NCBI GenBank assembly: GCA_026707905.1 | Contig: JAPOVY010000156.1 | Span: 1-47,513 of the forward strand | Origin: Gammaproteobacteria bacterium | GTDB lineage: Bacteria > Pseudomonadota > Gammaproteobacteria > Pseudomonadales > Azotimanducaceae | Length of the DNA: 47,513 nt | Reading direction: 5' to 3' | Part shown: positions 4,457 to 47,513 of the stretch, piece by piece | Layout of the letters: every line of letters starts with the position of its first letter | Numbering within the stretch: the first letter of the stretch is position 1 | The notes under the pieces: generated by a model | What the model saw: only the letters and a program-made list of their open reading frames with translations | Told to the model about the DNA's origin: nothing | Databases searched by the model: none | Made by a program: the position numbers and the translations under genes

Positions 4457-5551
4457 CTAAGGCAAAGCGCTCTTGAAGATTTTCGCTTCCTTTCGCGCAA
4501 TCTCAAAGGCGGTTTTACCGTTCCGATTCGTGATACTTGGGTCGGCGCCGGCTGCTAATAAGGCTTCCGCAGCTTTTACCTTTCCTTCGTATGTAGCGCG
4601 GTGCAAAGGCGTTCGCCCTTTCTTGTCCTGTGTATTCAGGTCAGCGCCTGAATTAGCTAGCAAGGCTACGATATTGGCTTGATCCATCTCCGCCGCTAGT
4701 TGAATGGGAGCGCGATGGGATCGGTTCAAGGCGTTTGGATTAGCGTTTTGATCGAGTAGCAATTGAGTTGTGGATTCTGCTCCTGCCCGCGCAGACCAAT
4801 GCAATGCGGTCATTTCAAACTCCAAAGACTGATGAGCGACGCCACGGTCCTCCTTTAGATGCTCTTCAACACGAGCCACATCATCTAGTGCACTTGCGGT
4901 ACCGATGTCGTAATACGCACCGTCATCCATCAGCAATTTGGCTACGGTAAGGTGTTCTTCTGTAGTTCCGAGCTTCGGGGGCGACACCGCTTCCTGCAAC
5001 GATGTTTCACCGCGTTCGCCATTGCTCTTCATACGCAATTCGTGGTGTTTGCGGACACCGTATTTGATAAGTAGCGTCGCCATTTCTACCGAGCCTCGAA
5101 ATGCCGCCCAATACATCAGAGAAATGTTGTCGGGCCACCCCAAATGTGGCTTCTTAACGGACACGCACGTCGCGTCGACGACGCCCGATTCAAATAGCGC
5201 TTGCAAGGAGTCCACTGCGTCACACCATGCACCTTCATGCATCTGGTTGTAGACGTCTTGTGGCATCTGAAACGGTACTTTGTGCTCAAGTAAAAACGTG
5301 ATGGCTGGACCACATCCTTTCATGCCAACCATGGTGTTGAGTAGGCGTGGTCCGATGTTGTCTAAAACGTGTGGATGTTGGCTAACGATTTCACCCATAC
5401 GTTCTGTGTTTGGATGCCCGTGCCACCGTTCTGGCGTTTGGCCGAGAGCGGCGATGATCATCGAACTTTCGAAGTGGTTTAAGTCCAGTTTCGGTTCATC
5501 GCGAAAGAAGAAATCGGACTGGACACGATTGATTGGATCAACAACTCTCAT
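4457..5551 (-). CDS. Ankyrin-repeat protein, after holC
   Basis: A 364-residue protein with no signal peptide. The C-terminal part holds at least three clear ankyrin repeats (ALHWSARAGAESTTQLLLD, then PIQLAAEMDQANIVALLANSGAD, split here as successive helices, then TPLHRATYEGKVKAAEALLAAGAD). Earlier repeats in the middle are more degenerate (LMYWAAFRGSVEMATLLIKYG). The first 110 residues are not recognised. It starts 15 bases after the holC stop on the same strand, so the two are probably co-transcribed. Ankyrin repeats mediate protein-protein contact; no partner or pathway can be read from the sequence. Confidence 0.85.
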   Translation of the reverse strand: MRVVDPINRVQSDFFFRDEPKLDLNHFESSMIIAALGQTPERWHGHPNTERMGEIVSQHPHVLDNIGPRLLNTMVGMKGCGPAITFLLEHKVPFQMPQDVYNQMHEGAWCDAVDSLQALFESGVVDATCVSVKKPHLGWPDNISLMYWAAFRGSVEMATLLIKYGVRKHHELRMKSNGERGETSLQEAVSPPKLGTTEEHLTVAKLLMDDGAYYDIGTASALDDVARVEEHLKEDRGVAHQSLEFEMTALHWSARAGAESTTQLLLDQNANPNALNRSHRAPIQLAAEMDQANIVALLANSGADLNTQDKKGRTPLHRATYEGKVKAAEALLAAGADPSITNRNGKTAFEIARKEAKIFKSALP

Positions 5552-31509: not shown

Positions 31510-32607
31510 TTACAGAGACAGTTTCGAGGACCGTCTTAGCACTTGCTTCGGCGTACGAGACTTCTTGTTTTTGGCTTGAAGGTTAGCTCCCCCGTTTATT
31601 AATAGCTCGACGACGGTTTGTAGGCGTACGCGATTTTTAATAGAGGATCGACATGCAGCATGCAACGGCGTATCCCCATCTCGATCTTGCGCATTAACGT
31701 TCGCACCGTGAGCGAGCAAAATCTCGACCGGTTCCACGAATCCGGCTTTCGCAGCACAATGTAGTGCGGTTTGCCCCTTGTAGTTGGTGACGTTCACATC
31801 TGCGCCTTGATCCAACAGGTCTTGAACGGATTTCGGATTGCCGCCGCGATCGCCTCGACAGAGATAAACCAACGACGGCCATCCATTCTCGCTGGCGTCT
31901 ATCTCAATGCGAGCACCGAATGATCGGAGCACTTCTACGAGGATTGGATCGCCGATATCACCTTGAAGTAAGGTTTTTTGCGTTACGTCGAGTCCGGCTT
32001 CAAGTAATCGTCTAAGTACCTCAGCGTTACCTCGCCAGATCGCGAAGCGGAGTAACAGGTTGCTGTAAGGTCGGACCTCTGCACCTTTACTAATTAGCAG
32101 TGCCACGATTTCAGCGTGGACGCCGCTGACCGCGTAATGAAGCAAGGTCGCGTCGAAATGAGGATCGTGTTGATAAAACTCCTTGTTAACCAAGGTTGGA
32201 TCGTCGCTGATAGCTCGTTCGACTTCTTGGATCTGACCTAGAAACGTTGAAGTCACCACGTCGTGTCGTGCTCCCGCTTCCTCAAGACGACTTACGATGG
32301 AGTTACGTTTCTTAAAGATAGCTGCACAGAGGGGGCTAATCTCGACGAGTAACGGTGTGTAGTGGCAGCCGCGTGCTTCGATGTCGATGTCGTCGTATGT
32401 ATCGAGCAGGTGTGAAACGATGTTTAGCCGGCCTCGATAGGCTGCCTCCCAGAGCATCGTCCTGCCGTGAGATCCGATTCGTGTACGCCAATCTGGGCGT
32501 AAGTCGAGAACCCGCTCAAGTGTGTCAAGGTCACCACGAGATGCTGCGCCAACGCCGATTTTCAGGAAGTCGCTTGCCTTTCCTGTGAGGATCGATGTCT
32601 TGTTCAA
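31510..32607 (-). CDS. Ankyrin-repeat protein
   Basis: A 365-residue protein made almost wholly of ankyrin repeats. Clear ones include TMLWEAAYRGRLNIVSHLLD, LLHYAVSGVHAEIVALLISKG, TALHCAAKAGFVEPVEILLA and TPLHAACRSSIKNRVRLQT. No signal peptide or membrane helix is visible, so it is likely cytoplasmic. It is about the same length as the ankyrin protein at 4457-5551 but not a close copy. No toxin or enzymatic domain is attached. It probably binds another protein; the partner is unknown. Confidence 0.88.
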   Translation of the reverse strand: MNKTSILTGKASDFLKIGVGAASRGDLDTLERVLDLRPDWRTRIGSHGRTMLWEAAYRGRLNIVSHLLDTYDDIDIEARGCHYTPLLVEISPLCAAIFKKRNSIVSRLEEAGARHDVVTSTFLGQIQEVERAISDDPTLVNKEFYQHDPHFDATLLHYAVSGVHAEIVALLISKGAEVRPYSNLLLRFAIWRGNAEVLRRLLEAGLDVTQKTLLQGDIGDPILVEVLRSFGARIEIDASENGWPSLVYLCRGDRGGNPKSVQDLLDQGADVNVTNYKGQTALHCAAKAGFVEPVEILLAHGANVNAQDRDGDTPLHAACRSSIKNRVRLQTVVELLINGGANLQAKNKKSRTPKQVLRRSSKLSL

Positions 32608-40591: not shown

Positions 40592-41587
40592 TTGACGCAA
40601 TTCAGGGCATTCGAAGTTACAAAGCAAGAAGACGGATCGTTCAATCGCGCGATCGTTGAACGGGATACGAGCGATCTACCTGATGGAGATGTTCTGATCC
40701 GTGTTGCGTATTCATCCTTGAATTACAAGGATGCGCTATCCGCAACTGGCAATCCGGGCGTCACGCGAAATTACCCGCACACGCCTGGGATCGACGCAGC
40801 AGGTACTGTCGCAGCGTCAAGCGACGCGTCGATCGCGAAAGGCACCGAAGTCATCGTCATCGGTTTCGACTTAGGTATGAATACGGCTGGCGGGTTCGGC
40901 GAATATATCTCGGTACCTGCCGGTTGGGTCACACCGCTCCCAACGGGTTTGAGTGTTCGTGAAGCCATGATCTTAGGTACTGCTGGATTTACTGCAGCAC
41001 TGTGCGTCCACAAACTAGAGGCTGCGGGAATGTCTCCTATTAGCGGTCCAGTATTGGTTACCGGTGCAACGGGTGGTGTTGGAAGTGTTGCTGTACGGCT
41101 TCTTAGTCAGGCCGGCTATGAAACCCATGCGGTTACCGGAAAGAAGAATGAGCACGAGTTTCTAACCAAGCTTGGTGCTACGGAAATCCATCCTCGGAGT
41201 GAATTCGATGATGAATCGTCGCGACCATTGCTTCGGGAAACATGGGGTGGTGTCGTTGATACGGTGGGTGGTACGATTCTCTTCAATTGCGTCAGAGCGC
41301 TGAAATACGGTCAAAGTGCAGCGGCTTGCGGACTGGTGAGTTCCCCGATCATTCCTGCTTCCGTGTTTCCGTTCATATTGCGGCATGTCAACCTCTTGGG
41401 AATTGACTCGGTCGAGTTACCGCTAGAGCAGAAAAATGTCATCTGGGAGAAGTTGGCTTCGGATTGGAAGATCGACAACCTAGAGGACTTCGTAACGCCA
41501 CTAATCCTTGAATCACTATCAGATGCGATTGACAGAATTCTGGCAGGTGAGATGGTCGGTCGTGGACTGCTTGCGTACGCAAACTAG
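40592..41587 (+). CDS. acuI: Acrylyl-CoA reductase/quinone oxidoreductase (AcuI/YhdH type)
   Basis: A 331-residue zinc-free medium-chain reductase. It begins with TTG (40592) after a good AGGAG. The family features are SSLNYKDALSATGNPG, the HTPGIDAAG region, and the NADPH-binding VTGATGGVGSVAV. AcuI reduces toxic acrylyl-CoA to propionyl-CoA, for example in DMSP breakdown in marine bacteria; close homologues (YhdH) have less defined roles. No DMSP-specific gene lies beside it. The last conserved gene before the accessory island. Confidence 0.9.
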   Translation: MTQFRAFEVTKQEDGSFNRAIVERDTSDLPDGDVLIRVAYSSLNYKDALSATGNPGVTRNYPHTPGIDAAGTVAASSDASIAKGTEVIVIGFDLGMNTAGGFGEYISVPAGWVTPLPTGLSVREAMILGTAGFTAALCVHKLEAAGMSPISGPVLVTGATGGVGSVAVRLLSQAGYETHAVTGKKNEHEFLTKLGATEIHPRSEFDDESSRPLLRETWGGVVDTVGGTILFNCVRALKYGQSAAACGLVSSPIIPASVFPFILRHVNLLGIDSVELPLEQKNVIWEKLASDWKIDNLEDFVTPLILESLSDAIDRILAGEMVGRGLLAYAN

Positions 41588-42279: not shown

Positions 42280-42285
42280 TATAAT
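42280..42285 (+). promoter_or_regulatory. Probable -10 element of the Ubl/E1 locus
   Basis: A perfect TATAAT lies 44 bases before the GTG start of the Ubl-like gene. A ribosome binding site (ATGAGGT) is present before that GTG. No convincing -35 was identified. Confidence 0.5.
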
Positions 42286-42328
42286 CCGAGACTTCGACTA
42301 ACAATTAGCGATGGGATGAGGTAACTTC

Positions 42329-42583
42329 GTGACGATCACAGTTAACGGTATTAAATGGGAAAAGCCACCGGTCGACGCCGGGGGTGAAATTTCCTGAGTA
42401 CAAGTATTTGAATTTGCGTCTGTCCACGATGCGAGTTTGCAGAGCGGCGGGGAGGTAAGAATCGTGTATGAGGATGCAATCGGTGAAGGTGGCAAGTTCA
42501 TTAGTGGAACTCTTCGCAGAGGAAGGAAAATAAAGGTTGGAGATGAAACGAAGTTCTTCGTTAAAGCGCCTAGTGACACTTAA
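42329..42583 (+). pseudogene. Ubiquitin-like (multiubiquitin-family) gene with in-frame TGA
   Basis: From GTG 42329, after a good ATGAGGT ribosome binding site, an 84-codon frame encodes one beta-grasp-like domain: ITVNGIKWEKPP opens like the first strands of bacterial multiubiquitin domains, VRIVYEDA and GTLRRGRKIKVGDETKFFV match the later strands. The frame contains a single TGA at codon 23 (42395-42397), replacing what a one-base change would make Trp or Arg. It ends PSDT rather than in diglycine. Its 3' end overlaps the next gene by 41 bases. Other genes here use TGA as stop, so recoding is unlikely; nonsense mutation or sequencing error are the main options. Confidence 0.6.
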
Positions 42584-43058
42584 TTCGGATTTAGAGAATT
42601 TATCCGGAGAAGGATTCAATATTGGAATATCGACTTCACCAAAGTGGATTAGTGTAAGGAAGCTGAGAGACAAAAATGGTATGCATATAAAGGACAAGTA
42701 CTGGCATAATCCCAAGCAGTGGTTAATCATCGGTAATGTACCTTACACAACGCGAAGAGACGGCAAACTTGTGCGCGATGAAGCAAGTATGGTAATGCCA
42801 ATCTGGTTTTGTGGAGGAAGAACAACTAAACCAAAAGAGCACTGGGCTTTATGGTTAGGAAATCACCCAATAAAAAACGGGGCACTTGTCAGGCATTTAA
42901 TAACAGGTGAATTTGAACGACATAGATTCGTACCAGAATATAAAAAAATTTTCCTTTTTTCTTGTGAACCTTCGACAAGAGAAACTGAATTTAGAGATTA
43001 CTACGATAAGGCAACTTATTATTTCGACTTATTTGATCCAGATTTTGAGGACGATTAG
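42543..43058 (+). CDS. DUF6791-like protein of a ubiquitin-like conjugation locus
   Basis: A 171-residue protein from ATG 42543 (GTG 42573 is an alternative that better fits homologue starts at SDLENLSGEGFNIG). As I recall the family, DUF6791 is the N-terminal part of large ThiF/E1 proteins in multiubiquitin loci; shared features here are a NVPYTT segment, WALWLGNHPIKNG, and a late FRDYYDKATYYFDLF. Here it is a separate gene that stops before the usual linker. The HP at 108-109 recalls the HP of E2 enzymes, but the following residue is Ile, not Cys. Arg is mostly AGA/AGG, unlike the chromosomal genes. Product is probably the conjugation-side partner of the next protein. Confidence 0.75.
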   Translation: MKRSSSLKRLVTLNSDLENLSGEGFNIGISTSPKWISVRKLRDKNGMHIKDKYWHNPKQWLIIGNVPYTTRRDGKLVRDEASMVMPIWFCGGRTTKPKEHWALWLGNHPIKNGALVRHLITGEFERHRFVPEYKKIFLFSCEPSTRETEFRDYYDKATYYFDLFDPDFEDD

Positions 43059-43060
43059 CA

Positions 43061-43735
43061 TTGCTGGCCATGGACTATGATCCCGATGGGCGTGTATCAC
43101 GTCAGAGAATTGCTATCGTCGGTCTCGGAGGTACGGGTTCTCACGTTCTGGATCTAATCGCAAAAACACCGGTCGGAGAAATCCACTTATACGATAATGA
43201 CACAATAAAGAAGAAGAACACGAAGAGGAGTCCAGGACCAATAGAAACGTGCAATGATGAACCGTTAAAAGCAGAATATTACAGAAGAAGGTATTCAGAA
43301 GCCGATCAGAAGATCCATGCGCACTGCACAGCAATTGACGAACGAAACGTTGAAGAATTGAGTTCTTTTTCAACGATATTCTTGTGCATCGACAAATCTA
43401 AAATCAAGGAACGGATTGTAAATATCTGTAAAGAAAGTGGAATCGTTCTAATTATCGTTGGATTAGATTGTTCGTTCGATGGCAAGAGATTTGATTCAAT
43501 GGTTGCAGTATCAGTTGGACAATCTGGTCAATATGATCATCTGAATTTTATTACTCCGGTTGAAGACGAGATTGAGAGTGACGACAACCATCAGACAATC
43601 GAACTTAATGCAATTAACGCGGCATTGGCAGTGTTGAAGTGGAAGCAAATATTGGGTCTGTTTAGCGATGATCGACCTTATCTTGAATTGTGTTACCTAA
43701 CACAGCGAAGTCAAATATACTTGGATCTGAACTGA
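43061..43735 (+). CDS. ThiF-family E1-like adenylyltransferase
   Basis: A 224-residue E1-like enzyme that should activate a ubiquitin-like protein with ATP. The nucleotide-binding loop is GLGGTGSHVLD (21-31), the second acidic strand is LYDNDTIKKKNTKRSPGP, with the Arg56-Ser-Pro-Gly that I recall from the DUF6791/ThiF family, and the end LNAINAALAVLKWKQILG matches the family's C-terminal helix. Cys137 (GLDCSF) is a candidate thioester Cys. TTG 43061, two bases after the previous stop and preceded by GAGGA, is the likely start; ATG 43070 is the other choice. Its last 74 bases overlap the DUF6527 gene on the opposite strand. Confidence 0.88.
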   Translation: MLAMDYDPDGRVSRQRIAIVGLGGTGSHVLDLIAKTPVGEIHLYDNDTIKKKNTKRSPGPIETCNDEPLKAEYYRRRYSEADQKIHAHCTAIDERNVEELSSFSTIFLCIDKSKIKERIVNICKESGIVLIIVGLDCSFDGKRFDSMVAVSVGQSGQYDHLNFITPVEDEIESDDNHQTIELNAINAALAVLKWKQILGLFSDDRPYLELCYLTQRSQIYLDLN

Positions 43736-44039
43736 ATGGTCTCAGCCACAGTATCTTGTTTTTCTCGATGAAATAATGAGATTGACATTCATGGTTGGTC
43801 ATCCCAATCGACGGGTGTATTGAGATGTGAGATCCATCATAGATCATCGTCCACCCATGTTCTTCAGGTGTCCCGAGTTGCATTACTGCTTGTCCGCCAC
43901 ACCCACAAGCACATAGATGCTTGAGAAACGTGTACTTTTCTCCGATTCGAATGTAGAGCTTACCTGGTTCAGTGTCCAATCCAGGTATTTCGTCGACAAA
44001 TTCAGGCACGATCTCGTACAGCCGGTGGTATTTCATCAC
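43662..44039 (-). CDS. DUF6527 zinc-motif protein
   Basis: A 125-residue protein with a probable zinc site: CACGCG (Cys43, Cys45 and Cys47), then ECQSHYFI (Cys85 and His88), plus the conserved HGWTMIYDGSHISIHPSIG. This fits DUF6527, which I know as a companion of multiubiquitin/ThiF loci, usually in the same operon and direction. Here it is on the opposite strand and convergent, with its non-conserved tail (after about residue 99) encoded over the end of the E1 gene. Its role in the family is unknown. Confidence 0.82.
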   Translation of the reverse strand: MMKYHRLYEIVPEFVDEIPGLDTEPGKLYIRIGEKYTFLKHLCACGCGGQAVMQLGTPEEHGWTMIYDGSHISIHPSIGMTNHECQSHYFIEKNKILWLRPFSSDPSIFDFAVLGNTIQDKVDHR

Positions 44040-44206: not shown

Positions 44207-44214
44207 TATCGGCA
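44207..44214. repeat. Left target-site duplication of the insertion sequence
   Basis: TATCGGCA directly abuts the left end of the element and is repeated exactly at 45483-45490 at the right end. An 8-base duplication is what IS1595-family transposition leaves. Confidence 0.93.
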
Positions 44215-45482
44215 GGGGATTACTAACTTAAATACAAAACCCCATTATGCGACACAAATTGTCGTGTGAAATAGGAGAATTTTGTTTCGACACCGACCTT
44301 AGATAGGAACCAGTATGGTTCGTTTAGCCGATGTACGACGTCCTCGTGAAGGCATCTCGCTCATGCGATTTCTTGAGCAGGTCGCCCCCGATGAAAGGAC
44401 GGCAGAAGCATGGTTTGTAGTGCGTCGCTGGCCGGACGGCGTCCGGTGTGCGCATTGCGATTCCACGCGAATCGACGTCCCCAGCCGTATTGGTGCCATG
44501 ACTGCCGACGTTACTTTTCCGTGAAAACGAATTCGGTCATGCATCGCTCACCGTTGAGTTGTCGGATCTGGCTCGGTGCGGTGTATTTAATGCTGACAAG
44601 TCTGAAAGGCGTTGCCAGTACCAAATTGGCACGCGATCTCGGGATCAGTCAGAAGTCCGCCTGGCACCTGGGTCATCGTCTCCGTGCGGCGTTCGCCAAT
44701 GGCCAAGACCGTCTCCTGCTCGGACCGATCGAGGTCGATGAGACCTACATCGGTGGTAAGGCAAAGAATCAACATGACGCCCAGCGCGACGGGAAGCGGG
44801 GTGTGGGTGGTAAATACCCAGTCGTTGGCATCCTCGATTGGGCGAGCGGTGAAGTTCGTGCTGAAGCTGTTGACGACACGAAAAAGGACGAGTTGCAGGG
44901 GTATTTGGAAGAGAATGTTCGGTACGACGCGACCGTGTATTCAGATGAGATGGGTAGCTACGACGATCTGCCACAGCCACACGAAGCGGTACAGCACAGC
45001 ACCGGCGAATACGTCCGTGGCGACGTGCACACGAATAGTCTTGAGTCATTCTGGTCGATGTTAAAACGCGGTTACGTTGGTATCTACCACCGGTTCTCGC
45101 AACAGCATCTGGACCGGTACGTGAAAGAGTATGCCAAGCGTCGTAGTATGCGTGAACTTGATACGATCGATCAGATGACCGAACCGATCACCCAGTTTGG
45201 GGCATACGTCTGTCCTGGTCCGACCTCGTCGCATACAGAGCCGCGGCCTAGTAGAGGTCGTGTCGTCTTCGAGACGCGCCATCACAACACCGAAGCATGA
45301 CCGCTCGAGGTGTCGTACATGGCTTCGTGGATCGCGTGCACACTGAAAGATCTCGTCTACATAGCTACCGGCGAAACGACGTCAGTTCGTCGTAACTAGC
45401 GATCCCTCAGTAACGAACTTTTTCTAACAAACACTAATAAACTGCGTTTTTATCCTCCTGCGTAGTTAAGTCAGTAATCCCC
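44215..45482 (+). mobile_element. Complete IS1595-like insertion sequence (1268 bp)
   Basis: The ends are imperfect inverted repeats: the left reads GGGGATTACTAACTTAAATA and the reverse complement of the right reads GGGGATTACTGACTTAACTA (18 of 20 identical). Both ends are flanked by the same 8-base duplication. The element encodes one transposase of the ISXO2/IS1595 type, disrupted by a frameshift. About 95 bases of noncoding sequence precede the transposase and about 180 follow it. It inserted between the DUF6527 gene and a degraded segment, and it does not break a gene that I can recognise. Confidence 0.93.
44315..45300 (+). pseudogene. IS1595-family transposase, frameshifted
   Basis: The N-terminal part (from ATG 44315, MVRLADVRRPREGISLMRFL) with the first zinc-finger pair CAHC is in one frame, and everything from RRPQPYWCHDCRRYFSVK onward is in the -1 frame, to the stop at 45300. 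The change falls near 44470-44482; restoring one base rejoins CAHC with CHDC into the usual zinc finger. The rest is intact: the DDE-type core has VDETYIGGK, VYSDEMGSYDDL and HTNSLESFWSMLKRG, as in ISXO2-like transposases. No slippery heptamer was seen, so programmed frameshifting is unlikely. Inactive copy or sequencing error. Confidence 0.85.
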
Positions 45483-45490
45483 TATCGGCA
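45483..45490. repeat. Right target-site duplication of the insertion sequence
   Basis: TATCGGCA, identical to 44207-44214, directly abuts the right end of the element. Confidence 0.93.
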
Positions 45491-46386: not shown

Positions 46387-47469
46387 ATGAAGACGCTATC
46401 GAATGCTGTATCAGGCCAACCCCGATCTAGTACCGTAGGTCGTGGGAATTCGACAAATCCGATAGATCCTGCGACAATCCCTGAAACGTGGTCGGACGGT
46501 TTAGTTAGCGTTTATTTCGACGATAGTTTAAATCGCTATACTGAATGGCCTACGCCTACGGTGATCGTCTCTGATGGTGGGTATGGTATTCTCGGATTTG
46601 AGGGTGATACTTCCGATCACCTAGACCTACCTCATTGGTACCAGCCGCACATTGAGATGTGGTCAAAACATGCGACACCGTCAACCACTCTGTGGTTTTG
46701 GAATTCCGAGATTGGTTGGGCGGTCGTACATCCTATACTGGAAGCGTATGGCTGGCGATATGTTAATGCCAATATCTGGAACAAAGGTAATGGACATATT
46801 GCAGGGAACGTAAATACACGGAAGATTAGAAGATTTCCCGTGGTTACCGAGGTGTGCGCACAGTACGTCTACGAAGCACGAATCGATGGATTGACTCTCA
46901 AGCAGTGGCTACTTCGAGAGTGGCGTAGGACAGGGTTGCCACTGAAGAAGGCAAATGAAGCGTGCGATGTAGCCGATGCAGCTGTGAGGAAATATCTGGA
47001 TCAAGGACACTTGTGGTACTTCCCACCACCAGAAATGTTTGAAAAACTTCAGAAATACGCCAATTTACACGGAGATGCCAACGGTCGCCCATATTTCGCA
47101 GTTGACGGTAAGAGGCCAACTTCAGCGGATCAGTGGATAAAGATGCGTGCAAAATTCAAGTGTCCGCATGGGTATACGAACGTCTGGGATCGGCCAGCGC
47201 TCCACGGATCGGAACGGTATCGTCTATCTGGTGGAACAGGGAGAGCCATTCACTTAAATCAGAAGCCACTCGATTTAATAACTATGATTATTCAAGCGTC
47301 ATCGGAGAAAGATGATGTAGTCTGGGAACCCTTTGGTGGTCTTTTTACAGCTTGCATCGCTGCCCGTTCAATCCAACGACGCGCATTGGGCTGTGAGATT
47401 GACTCTACGTATTTTTACCACGGAGTCAATCGATTGCAGAAAGAGTCAGAAATGCTGCAGTGGGTTTAA
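46387..47469 (+). CDS. Beta-class amino DNA methyltransferase
   Basis: A 360-residue N6-adenine or N4-cytosine DNA methyltransferase. The catalytic motif IV is SDGGYG (62-67) in place of the more common (D/N/S)PPY. The S-adenosylmethionine motif comes later, VVWEPFGGLFTAC (PFGG at 315-318), preceded by HLNQKPLDL. This order, catalytic motif first, defines the beta class. A long middle region (TGLPLKKANEACDV, then HLWYFPPPEMF) probably recognises DNA. No cognate restriction enzyme gene is seen before the window ends 44 bases later. It may be the methyltransferase of a restriction-modification system continuing to the right, or an orphan. Confidence 0.9.
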   Translation: MKTLSNAVSGQPRSSTVGRGNSTNPIDPATIPETWSDGLVSVYFDDSLNRYTEWPTPTVIVSDGGYGILGFEGDTSDHLDLPHWYQPHIEMWSKHATPSTTLWFWNSEIGWAVVHPILEAYGWRYVNANIWNKGNGHIAGNVNTRKIRRFPVVTEVCAQYVYEARIDGLTLKQWLLREWRRTGLPLKKANEACDVADAAVRKYLDQGHLWYFPPPEMFEKLQKYANLHGDANGRPYFAVDGKRPTSADQWIKMRAKFKCPHGYTNVWDRPALHGSERYRLSGGTGRAIHLNQKPLDLITMIIQASSEKDDVVWEPFGGLFTACIAARSIQRRALGCEIDSTYFYHGVNRLQKESEMLQWV

Positions 47470-47513
47470 TGTTAAATCAACAAACGTGTTAGTGCCTCTA
47501 GTTTATCCTCGTC

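What the first reader, a model, noticed from the sequence alone, without database searches (positions are those of the whole stretch)
42280..44039. Compact ubiquitin-like conjugation locus (Ubl, DUF6791, ThiF/E1, DUF6527)
A Ubl-like gene, a DUF6791-like gene and an E1-like gene follow each other under one TATAAT, with DUF6527 facing them. Related bacterial Ubl/E1 systems have been linked to phage defence. The codon usage (AGA/AGG), A+T content, an insertion sequence and a DNA methyltransferase next door mark it as a transferred defence island.
Basis: partly seen in the sequence, partly recalled or inferred. Interest (0 to 1): 0.8.

Follow-up and report, generated by a model that had tools for sequence, protein, structure and literature searches.

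The report
Bacterial ubiquitin-like cassette, tag gene interrupted
A horizontally acquired bacterial ubiquitin-like gene cassette of an old but uncharacterised family sits next to a restriction-modification system; its small tag protein ends in threonine instead of glycine, and in this genome the tag gene carries a premature stop.

Summary
The four components are there: a Ubl-like frame (42329-42583), DUF6791 (42543-43058), a ThiF/E1 adenylyltransferase (43061-43735) and a convergent DUF6527 protein (43662-44039, minus). The set belongs to a known, uncharacterised family, the polyUbl operons of Iyer et al. 2006, in the form where an unknown domain replaces JAB on the E1. Relatives occur in many bacteria and some archaea, mostly as Ubl, DUF6791-E1 fusion and DUF6527 on one strand. 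The window shows a rarer variant (split DUF6791/E1, tail-to-tail DUF6527), seen in four loci of one genome family. Of 100 Ubls examined 96 end in Ser and 4 in Thr, the four being that variant; none has Gly-Gly. The E1 has no conserved catalytic Cys. The cassette lies in an island with an insertion sequence and a type II restriction-modification pair, absent from related genomes at that site. Defence context holds; protection against phage is unproven. Foldseek found no PDB match at E <= 0.001 for the DUF6791 and DUF6527 models. New variant of a known kind.

The parts
42329..42583 (+). Ubl-like frame (multiubiquitin family), GTG start, interrupted by an in-frame TGA at 42395-42397; C-terminus SDT
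   Evidence: Stop. Non-circular profile 13.3 bits vs best shuffle 7.3 of 1000. By comparison with relatives the TGA falls at a column that is F or Y in 94 of 95.
42395..42397 (+). premature TGA stop in the Ubl frame
42543..43058 (+). DUF6791 protein as a separate gene (ATG start 42543), overlapping the Ubl frame's end by 41 bases
   Evidence: Pfam DUF6791 46.8 bits; relatives-only profile 62.5 bits vs best of 300 shuffles 4.2; AlphaFold2 pLDDT 85.5, pTM 0.82
43061..43735 (+). ThiF/E1-type adenylyltransferase (TTG 43061 or ATG 43070), adenylation residues kept, no conserved catalytic Cys
   Evidence: Pfam ThiF 68.8 bits; relatives-only profile 216 bits vs best of 300 shuffles 2.4; residue table
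43662..44039 (-). DUF6527 protein, predicted metal-binding (H-x-C-x-C-G-C ... C-x2-H), convergent with the E1, 74-base tail overlap
   Evidence: Pfam DUF6527 70.6 bits; relatives-only profile 91.3 bits vs best of 300 shuffles 4.8; conserved Cys/His; AlphaFold2 pLDDT 84.9
44215..45482 (+). IS1595-type insertion sequence with frameshifted transposase; 8-bp target duplication TATCGGCA at 44207-44214 and 45483-45490
   Evidence: Pfam DDE_Tnp_IS1595; terminal inverted repeats; duplication; a copy 81% identical elsewhere in the genome has an open 336-residue transposase
46387..47469 (+). DNA methyltransferase of a probable type II restriction-modification pair; its partner enzyme gene is on the overlapping contig C144
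   Evidence: Pfam N6_N4_Mtase, PADLOC MTase_II 3.8e-20 and REase_II 3.7e-49 for the neighbour L127:2398-3426; 54-base contig overlap
40592..41587 (+). left flank conserved in congeners (quinone-oxidoreductase-like gene); island junction at its 3' end
   Evidence: blastn match to L122, L123 and L124 ends at 41565-41572; a match in 18 of 18 genomes of the genus searched, own included, though in one (G853) only at 28% identity

Best explanation
A horizontally acquired, split-gene member of the multiubiquitin / DUF6791-ThiF / DUF6527 family (polyUbl operons, E1 with an unknown domain in place of JAB), sitting in a small defence-type island. Shown by sequence: the components, the complete set of recalled E1 adenylation residues, the family-wide Ser/Thr C-terminus of the Ubl, the lack of a conserved E1 Cys, the island, the premature stop. 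Inferred: in intact relatives the E1 binds ATP and adenylates the C-terminal carboxylate of the Ubl, which ends in Ser or Thr and needs no protease to mature. Because the E1 has no conserved thioester Cys and no E2 is seen in the cassette, the activated Ubl is handed on within the E1-DUF6791 complex, with DUF6791 in the place of E2 or JAB and the zinc-binding DUF6527 protein as third partner (target choice, transfer or removal). The system is probably switched on by stress or infection, since a share of relatives lie beside HTH, M78-peptidase or WYL genes. In this genome the Ubl is truncated after 22 residues, so this copy is most likely inactive or being lost.
For: Families. Same operon elsewhere: (one strand, usually fused). 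Published description: PMC1779556, section 14 and Table 1 row 6e. Split and convergent layout in L102, L103 and L133; an E1 tree without L133 puts window, L102 and L103 on one side of a branch (90/85). Ubl last residue Ser 96, Thr 4 of 100; at 91 loci with a 26-base overlap of Ubl and next gene, the base that makes Ser rather than Pro is silent in the DUF6791 frame, and is T in 90 of 91 where 41.5 are expected. E1: GxGGxG, D, D, N, R, K, D all kept in the window; 38 of 98 aligned E1 domains have no Cys after the adenylation Asp. E1-DUF6527 natural fusion in L140. A family Ubl ending TDKS has a solved structure, 9cd2. Island.
Against: No biochemistry. The Ubl match in the window is weak and partly positional. 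The window E1 is very divergent (end branch 3.37), lacks the N-terminal Y-x-D-T-x-S-x-R segment of relatives, and keeps 40 of 62 conserved positions. Siblings L102 and L103 have lost the adenylation Asp, so this branch may contain pseudoenzymes. Foldseek found no PDB match at E <= 0.001 for DUF6791 or DUF6527, so their roles are guesses. A single-base assembly error could explain the TGA.
Confidence: 0.7

Rival explanations
1. The cassette works in this genome. The TGA is an assembly or sequencing error, or is read through at low level by tryptophan tRNA, which would put an aromatic residue where the family needs F or Y.
For: The downstream frame is kept to a family-like C-terminus. DUF6791, E1 and DUF6527 are open and score as family members. 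Losses at conserved E1 positions equal those of siblings with an open Ubl (40 of 62 vs 40 and 39), so there is no sign of wider decay of the cassette.
Against: The IS next door is also frameshifted, while an 81% identical copy on another contig has an open transposase. Relatives have F or Y there in 94 of 95, whose codons lie two changes from TGA; W is seen in none of the 95.
Confidence: 0.25
2. The Ubl is not a protein tag at all: the ThiF-type enzyme activates the C-terminal Ser/Thr for small-molecule or peptide chemistry, as MccB does with the C-terminal Asn of a peptide.
For: Non-glycine C-terminus in 100 of 100, no conserved E1 Cys, and TcdA (first, 6.4e-09), MccB and PaaA are among the PDB matches of the E1 profile. 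MccB chemistry is recalled knowledge.
Against: The best PDB match of one canonical member by single-sequence search is Citrobacter BubCD, from a pathway whose paper title, seen only in reference lists, speaks of protein conjugation. No biosynthetic genes stand out among the 25 most frequent of 41 Pfam families of upstream neighbours.
Confidence: 0.2
3. A cofactor or sulfur-carrier pathway (ThiS/ThiF or MoaD/MoeB type).
For: ThiF fold.
Against: The Ubl ends in Ser/Thr, not Gly-Gly; matches to the NCBIfam ThiF and MoeB models lie far under their cut-offs, while PRK06153 'hypothetical protein' models score best; no thiamine or molybdopterin gene among the four cassette proteins.
Confidence: 0.03

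Closest known systems
polyUbl operons, row 6e of Iyer, Burroughs and Aravind 2006 (PMC1779556), version with an unknown N-terminal domain on the E1 in place of JAB
   Same: Ubl with one to three domains, E1 with N-terminal non-JAB domain, and a metal-binding protein whose ligand spacing C-x3-C-x37-C-x2-H agrees with the printed C-x(3)-C-x(35-38)-H-x(2)-C except for the order of the last two
   Different: DUF6791 and E1 are separate genes, DUF6527 is convergent, the Ubl is single, ends in Thr and has a premature stop
Bub, bacterial ubiquitination-like operons (PDB 9ea4 and others; Ye et al. 2026 and Gong et al. 2025, not held here)
   Same: Related E1 (phmmer 7.6e-07 from a canonical member to BubCD; with an 8-row profile 8.3e-09, just behind TcdA), and neighbouring HTH/peptidase or WYL genes as reported for Bub
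   Different: The match to BubCD covers only the E1 part; the DUF6791 part of a family profile matched no PDB chain. Whether the Bub authors would include the DUF6791 form I could not read
Bil (BilABCD) and type II CBASS E1/E2 systems
   Same: Ubl or CD-NTase plus E1 in defence islands; generic E1-E2 PADLOC hits to the E1
   Different: No E2 with catalytic Cys, no JAB and no CD-NTase among the four window proteins, and no Gly terminus
Multiubiquitin protein of PDB 9cd2
   Same: A solved Ubl of this family, ending TDKS like most relatives
   Different: A chain of 222 residues matched over at least two Ubl domains; the window frame has one domain and ends in Thr

Membership tests
polyUbl operon, Iyer row 6e, domain-X form | Ubl of the multiubiquitin family | tested here: inconclusive
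   Right place and C-terminus, 13.3 bits over shuffles, but no Pfam hit and a stop inside. Siblings L102 and L103 score 17.9 and 22.3 bits for PF14452, under its cut-off of 24.5
polyUbl operon, Iyer row 6e, domain-X form | E1-like enzyme | tested here: met
   ThiF 68.8 bits
polyUbl operon, Iyer row 6e, domain-X form | unknown non-JAB domain fused N-terminally to the E1 | tested here: not met
   The domain is present (DUF6791) but as a separate gene; separate also in L044, L059, L061, L082, L102-L104. That DUF6791 is the paper's domain X is my inference
polyUbl operon, Iyer row 6e, domain-X form | metal-binding protein with C-x3-C-x(35-38)-[HC]-x2-[CH] | tested here: met
   C36, C40, C78, H81 of the aligned domain, conserved in 96 or 97 of 97; order of the last pair differs from the printed one
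Bub | E1 fused to the N-terminal part seen in BubCD, plus an E2-like protein (composition partly recalled) | tested here: not met
   Only the E1 part matches BubCD; no E2 found by Pfam in the four window proteins
Bub | authors' own definition of the operon | not testable with these tools
   Papers not held
Bil / type II CBASS E1-E2-JAB | E2 with Cys, JAB peptidase, Ubl or CD-NTase | tested here: not met
   No such Pfam domains in the four proteins at E <= 1; Ubl ends in Thr
Anti-phage defence system | protects cells from phage | not testable with these tools
   Only context: R-M pair, siblings near Ssp and CapH-like genes

The most novel reading that the evidence does not exclude
A widespread bacterial and archaeal ubiquitin-like activation system that uses neither a glycine terminus, nor an E1 cysteine, nor an E2: the E1-DUF6791 pair activates a C-terminal Ser (or Thr in the variant seen here) and passes the Ubl on by chemistry without thioesters, with DUF6527 as zinc-binding partner, as part of stress-induced defence.
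Probability: 0.35. Interest if true: 0.75.

Novelty: new variant of a known kind. Interest (0 to 1): 0.45.

Why it matters
Bacterial ubiquitin-like pathways bear on the origin of eukaryotic ubiquitin and on phage defence. This family was sketched in 2006, and no paper in the open library searched holds the names DUF6791 or DUF6527 (subscription papers are mostly not held). Its constant Ser/Thr terminus and the lack of a conserved E1 cysteine make one question directly testable: can an E1 activate a Ubl that ends in a hydroxyl amino acid and pass it on without a thioester? The split variant separates DUF6791 from the E1, which would make the two easier to study apart, but intact relatives rather than this broken copy should be used.

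Tried and rejected
Searches that led nowhere: the single window E1 in genome contigs (no relative); window DUF6791 against plasmids (no match) and against 398 genomes of the phylum (only its own); PF14452 and a 10-row Ubl alignment in the own genome (nothing, not even the known frame, so no statement about other Ubl genes is possible); Foldseek against the PDB for DUF6791 and DUF6527 (no match at E <= 0.001); Pfam at E <= 1 for 84 DUF6791 domains (no other family in more than 2 of 84), so an E2-like or JAB-like fold for DUF6791 is neither shown nor excluded.

Considered and rejected: a fused DUF6791-E1 gene broken by a frameshift, because three sibling loci show the same split with the same convergent DUF6527. 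General decay of the cassette as the cause of its divergence, because siblings with an open Ubl have lost as many conserved E1 positions. The C-terminal Ser as a by-product of the overlapping gene start, because the deciding base is silent in the other frame and still fixed. Rows are not independent (some loci are near-identical, for example L037/L038 and L056/L064/L066), so that count is not a probability. The TATAAT as a promoter.

Rows dropped: of the loci fetched, L094 and L108-L110 were left out of the counts as non-members, and L001, L006, L095 and L101 as copies of the window; later copies of loci already held (L129-L132, L135, L136, L138) were left out. L042 and L050 were left out of the neighbour scan for want of one core gene, and 6 more loci had no downstream frame long enough. 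L073, L103 and near-identical rows were left out of the structure alignment A7, and L086 of A8. Only 4 of the 17 congeners were compared at the junction, in stretches of 15-19 kb. No matched control was run for the neighbour scans.
Full report
WHAT IS THERE. Pfam confirms DUF6791 (42537-43058 as searched, 46.8 bits), ThiF (43061-43735, 68.8 bits) and DUF6527 (43662-44039 minus, 70.6 bits), each over its curated cut-off. The frame taken as a Ubl, 42329-42583, holds an in-frame TGA at 42395-42397. Read with X at the stop it has no Pfam hit. A profile built only from relatives gives it 13.3 bits; the best of 1000 shuffles gives 7.3, and the part after the stop is the best of 631 window frames (12.2 bits, E 0.007). 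Together with its place and its tail I accept it as a Ubl remnant. By comparison of the flanking residues the TGA falls on a column that is F or Y in 94 of 95 relatives.

THE FAMILY. Elsewhere the same parts form one operon: multiubiquitin protein, DUF6791-ThiF fusion, DUF6527, usually on one strand. Of the 5 relatives found on viral contigs, 4 carry DUF6791-E1 and DUF6527. In a class-wide draw 5 of 369 genomes, the own one included, carry DUF6791. The system is described without a name in Iyer et al. 2006 (PMC1779556; section 14 and Table 1 passages read): polyUbl, an E1 that in a subset has an uncharacterised N-terminal domain in place of JAB, and a metal-binding protein. I identify that domain with DUF6791 and the metal-binding protein with DUF6527; this is my inference, since no paper in the searched library, this one included, holds those names. 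In PADLOC at E <= 0.01 the E1 has generic E1-E2 hits and DUF6791 one weak restriction-enzyme hit (0.0057); the Ubl and DUF6527 have none. The NCBIfam models that fit the fusion are called 'hypothetical protein'.

THE VARIANT. In the window DUF6791 and E1 are separate genes and DUF6527 is convergent, overlapping the E1 end by 74 bases. In the larger of these searches 11 of 206 genomes held a related E1 at E <= 1e-15. On a tree of 98 E1s, made before L133 was found, window, L102 and L103 are one side of a branch (90/85), and with the split locus L104 another (91/98); the branches are long and the bootstrap had not settled. DUF6791 and E1 are also split in L044, L059, L061 and L082. The window E1 keeps 40 of 62 positions conserved in the family; L102 and L103, whose Ubls are open, keep 40 and 39. 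So divergence is a property of the branch and not of this broken copy.

CHEMISTRY. The last residue of the Ubl is Ser in 96 and Thr in 4 of 100 loci; the four are exactly the split-convergent ones. There is no Gly-Gly. The Ubl end overlaps the start of the next gene by exactly 26 bases in 90 of the 97 loci where the overlap could be measured (91 by the slightly different rule), which could force a Ser by accident. However, the base that decides between Ser and Pro is a silent third position in the other frame: it is T in 90 of 91 loci where 41.5 are expected from the same genes. The loci are related, so this is not a probability, but the terminal Ser looks kept for its own sake. A solved family Ubl, PDB 9cd2, also ends TDKS. 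In the E1 the glycine motif and the D, D, N, R, K and D that I recall as adenylation residues are present in 95 to 98 of 98 rows, and all in the window; L102 and L103 have lost the last Asp. No Cys is conserved where E1s keep their catalytic Cys (place recalled): 27 of 98 rows have any Cys in that region, and 38 of 98 have none after the adenylation Asp within the aligned domain. By single-sequence search the nearest solved E1 to a canonical member is Citrobacter BubCD (7.6e-07); with an 8-row profile TcdA comes first (6.4e-09) and BubCD just behind (8.3e-09), then UBA5 and MccB. One genome carries a natural fusion of an E1 with DUF6527 (L140, a 344-residue frame), which ties those two together.

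DUF6791 AND DUF6527. AlphaFold2 gives confident models (pLDDT 85.5 and 84.9; pTM 0.82 and 0.76). DUF6791 is helices, several strands, helix; DUF6527 is nearly all strand, with the Cys/His set conserved in 96 or 97 of 97. Foldseek found no PDB chain at E <= 0.001 for either. The second aligner was not available. The Ubl and the E1 were not modelled.

SURROUNDINGS. Of four congeneric genomes compared, three match the window up to 41565-41572, close to the end of gene 40592-41587, and then stop, apart from an IS copy and a second copy of the gene's end in one of them; the fourth and most distant (L125) matches to 41448. In L125 that gene and a Na/H exchanger gene lie about 55 bases apart. The exchanger of the own genome lies near the end of contig C144, whose end is identical over 54 bases to the end of the window contig. 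A DUF772 transposase fragment next to the exchanger is shared with three congeners, so it belongs to the site rather than to the insert. Between that fragment and gene 40592-41587, about 7.5 kb by coordinates, lie the cassette, an IS1595-type element with an 8-bp target duplication and a frameshifted transposase, a methyltransferase, and a 342-residue protein with a PADLOC type II restriction enzyme match of 3.7e-49, though no Pfam match. Sibling L103 lies near SspB and SspC, and sibling L102 near a CapH-like HTH protein (3.2e-08) (two proteins beside each were tested; L133 was not examined). Of 78 upstream neighbours of relatives, 14 match M78 peptidase, 14 HTH_3 and 2 WYL (sets may overlap); the two plasmid loci L007 and L008 also have WYL neighbours. 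I saw no such regulator gene beside the cassette in the window (frames, by eye). PMC13373217 (passages and one section read) reports CapW (WYL) or CapH+CapP (HTH and peptidase) beside 219 of 544 Bub operons and says that Bub has not been shown to protect against phage. The 72 downstream neighbours hit 96 PADLOC families at E <= 1e-10 (25 shown), but no matched control was run: 34 window genes also gave 12 PADLOC families, 5 of them from the island's methyltransferase. I therefore claim defence context, not enrichment.

VERDICT. A real locus of a known but uncharacterised family, in a rare gene arrangement, with its Ubl interrupted in this assembly.

Noticed in passing
L140:1285-2316 (minus): A single frame with an E1 domain followed by DUF6527, a natural fusion, in a genome (G842) that also carries the split cassette L104.
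   Followed up: partly
window 41588 to contig end, and L122-L125: The gap between the oxidoreductase gene and the Na/H exchanger gene looks like an insertion hotspot in the genus: DUF772 transposase fragments, acetyltransferase, phosphotransferase and nucleotidyltransferase genes in congeners. In L124 a second copy of the oxidoreductase 3' end lies about 5 kb away.
   Followed up: partly
window 47460-47513: The window contig end is identical over 54 bases to the end of contig C144 of the same genome; the restriction enzyme gene next to the methyltransferase is on C144.
   Followed up: yes
L102, L103 (E1): Both have lost the adenylation Asp (to Gly), and L102 also the Asn, so these siblings may be pseudoenzymes.
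   Followed up: no
L092:6030-6263 (minus): A viral contig with a full cassette and a second Ubl-like frame on the opposite strand just downstream of DUF6527.
   Followed up: no
window 31510-32607 and 4457-5551 (minus): Two proteins that look like ankyrin repeats by eye, away from the island.
   Followed up: no
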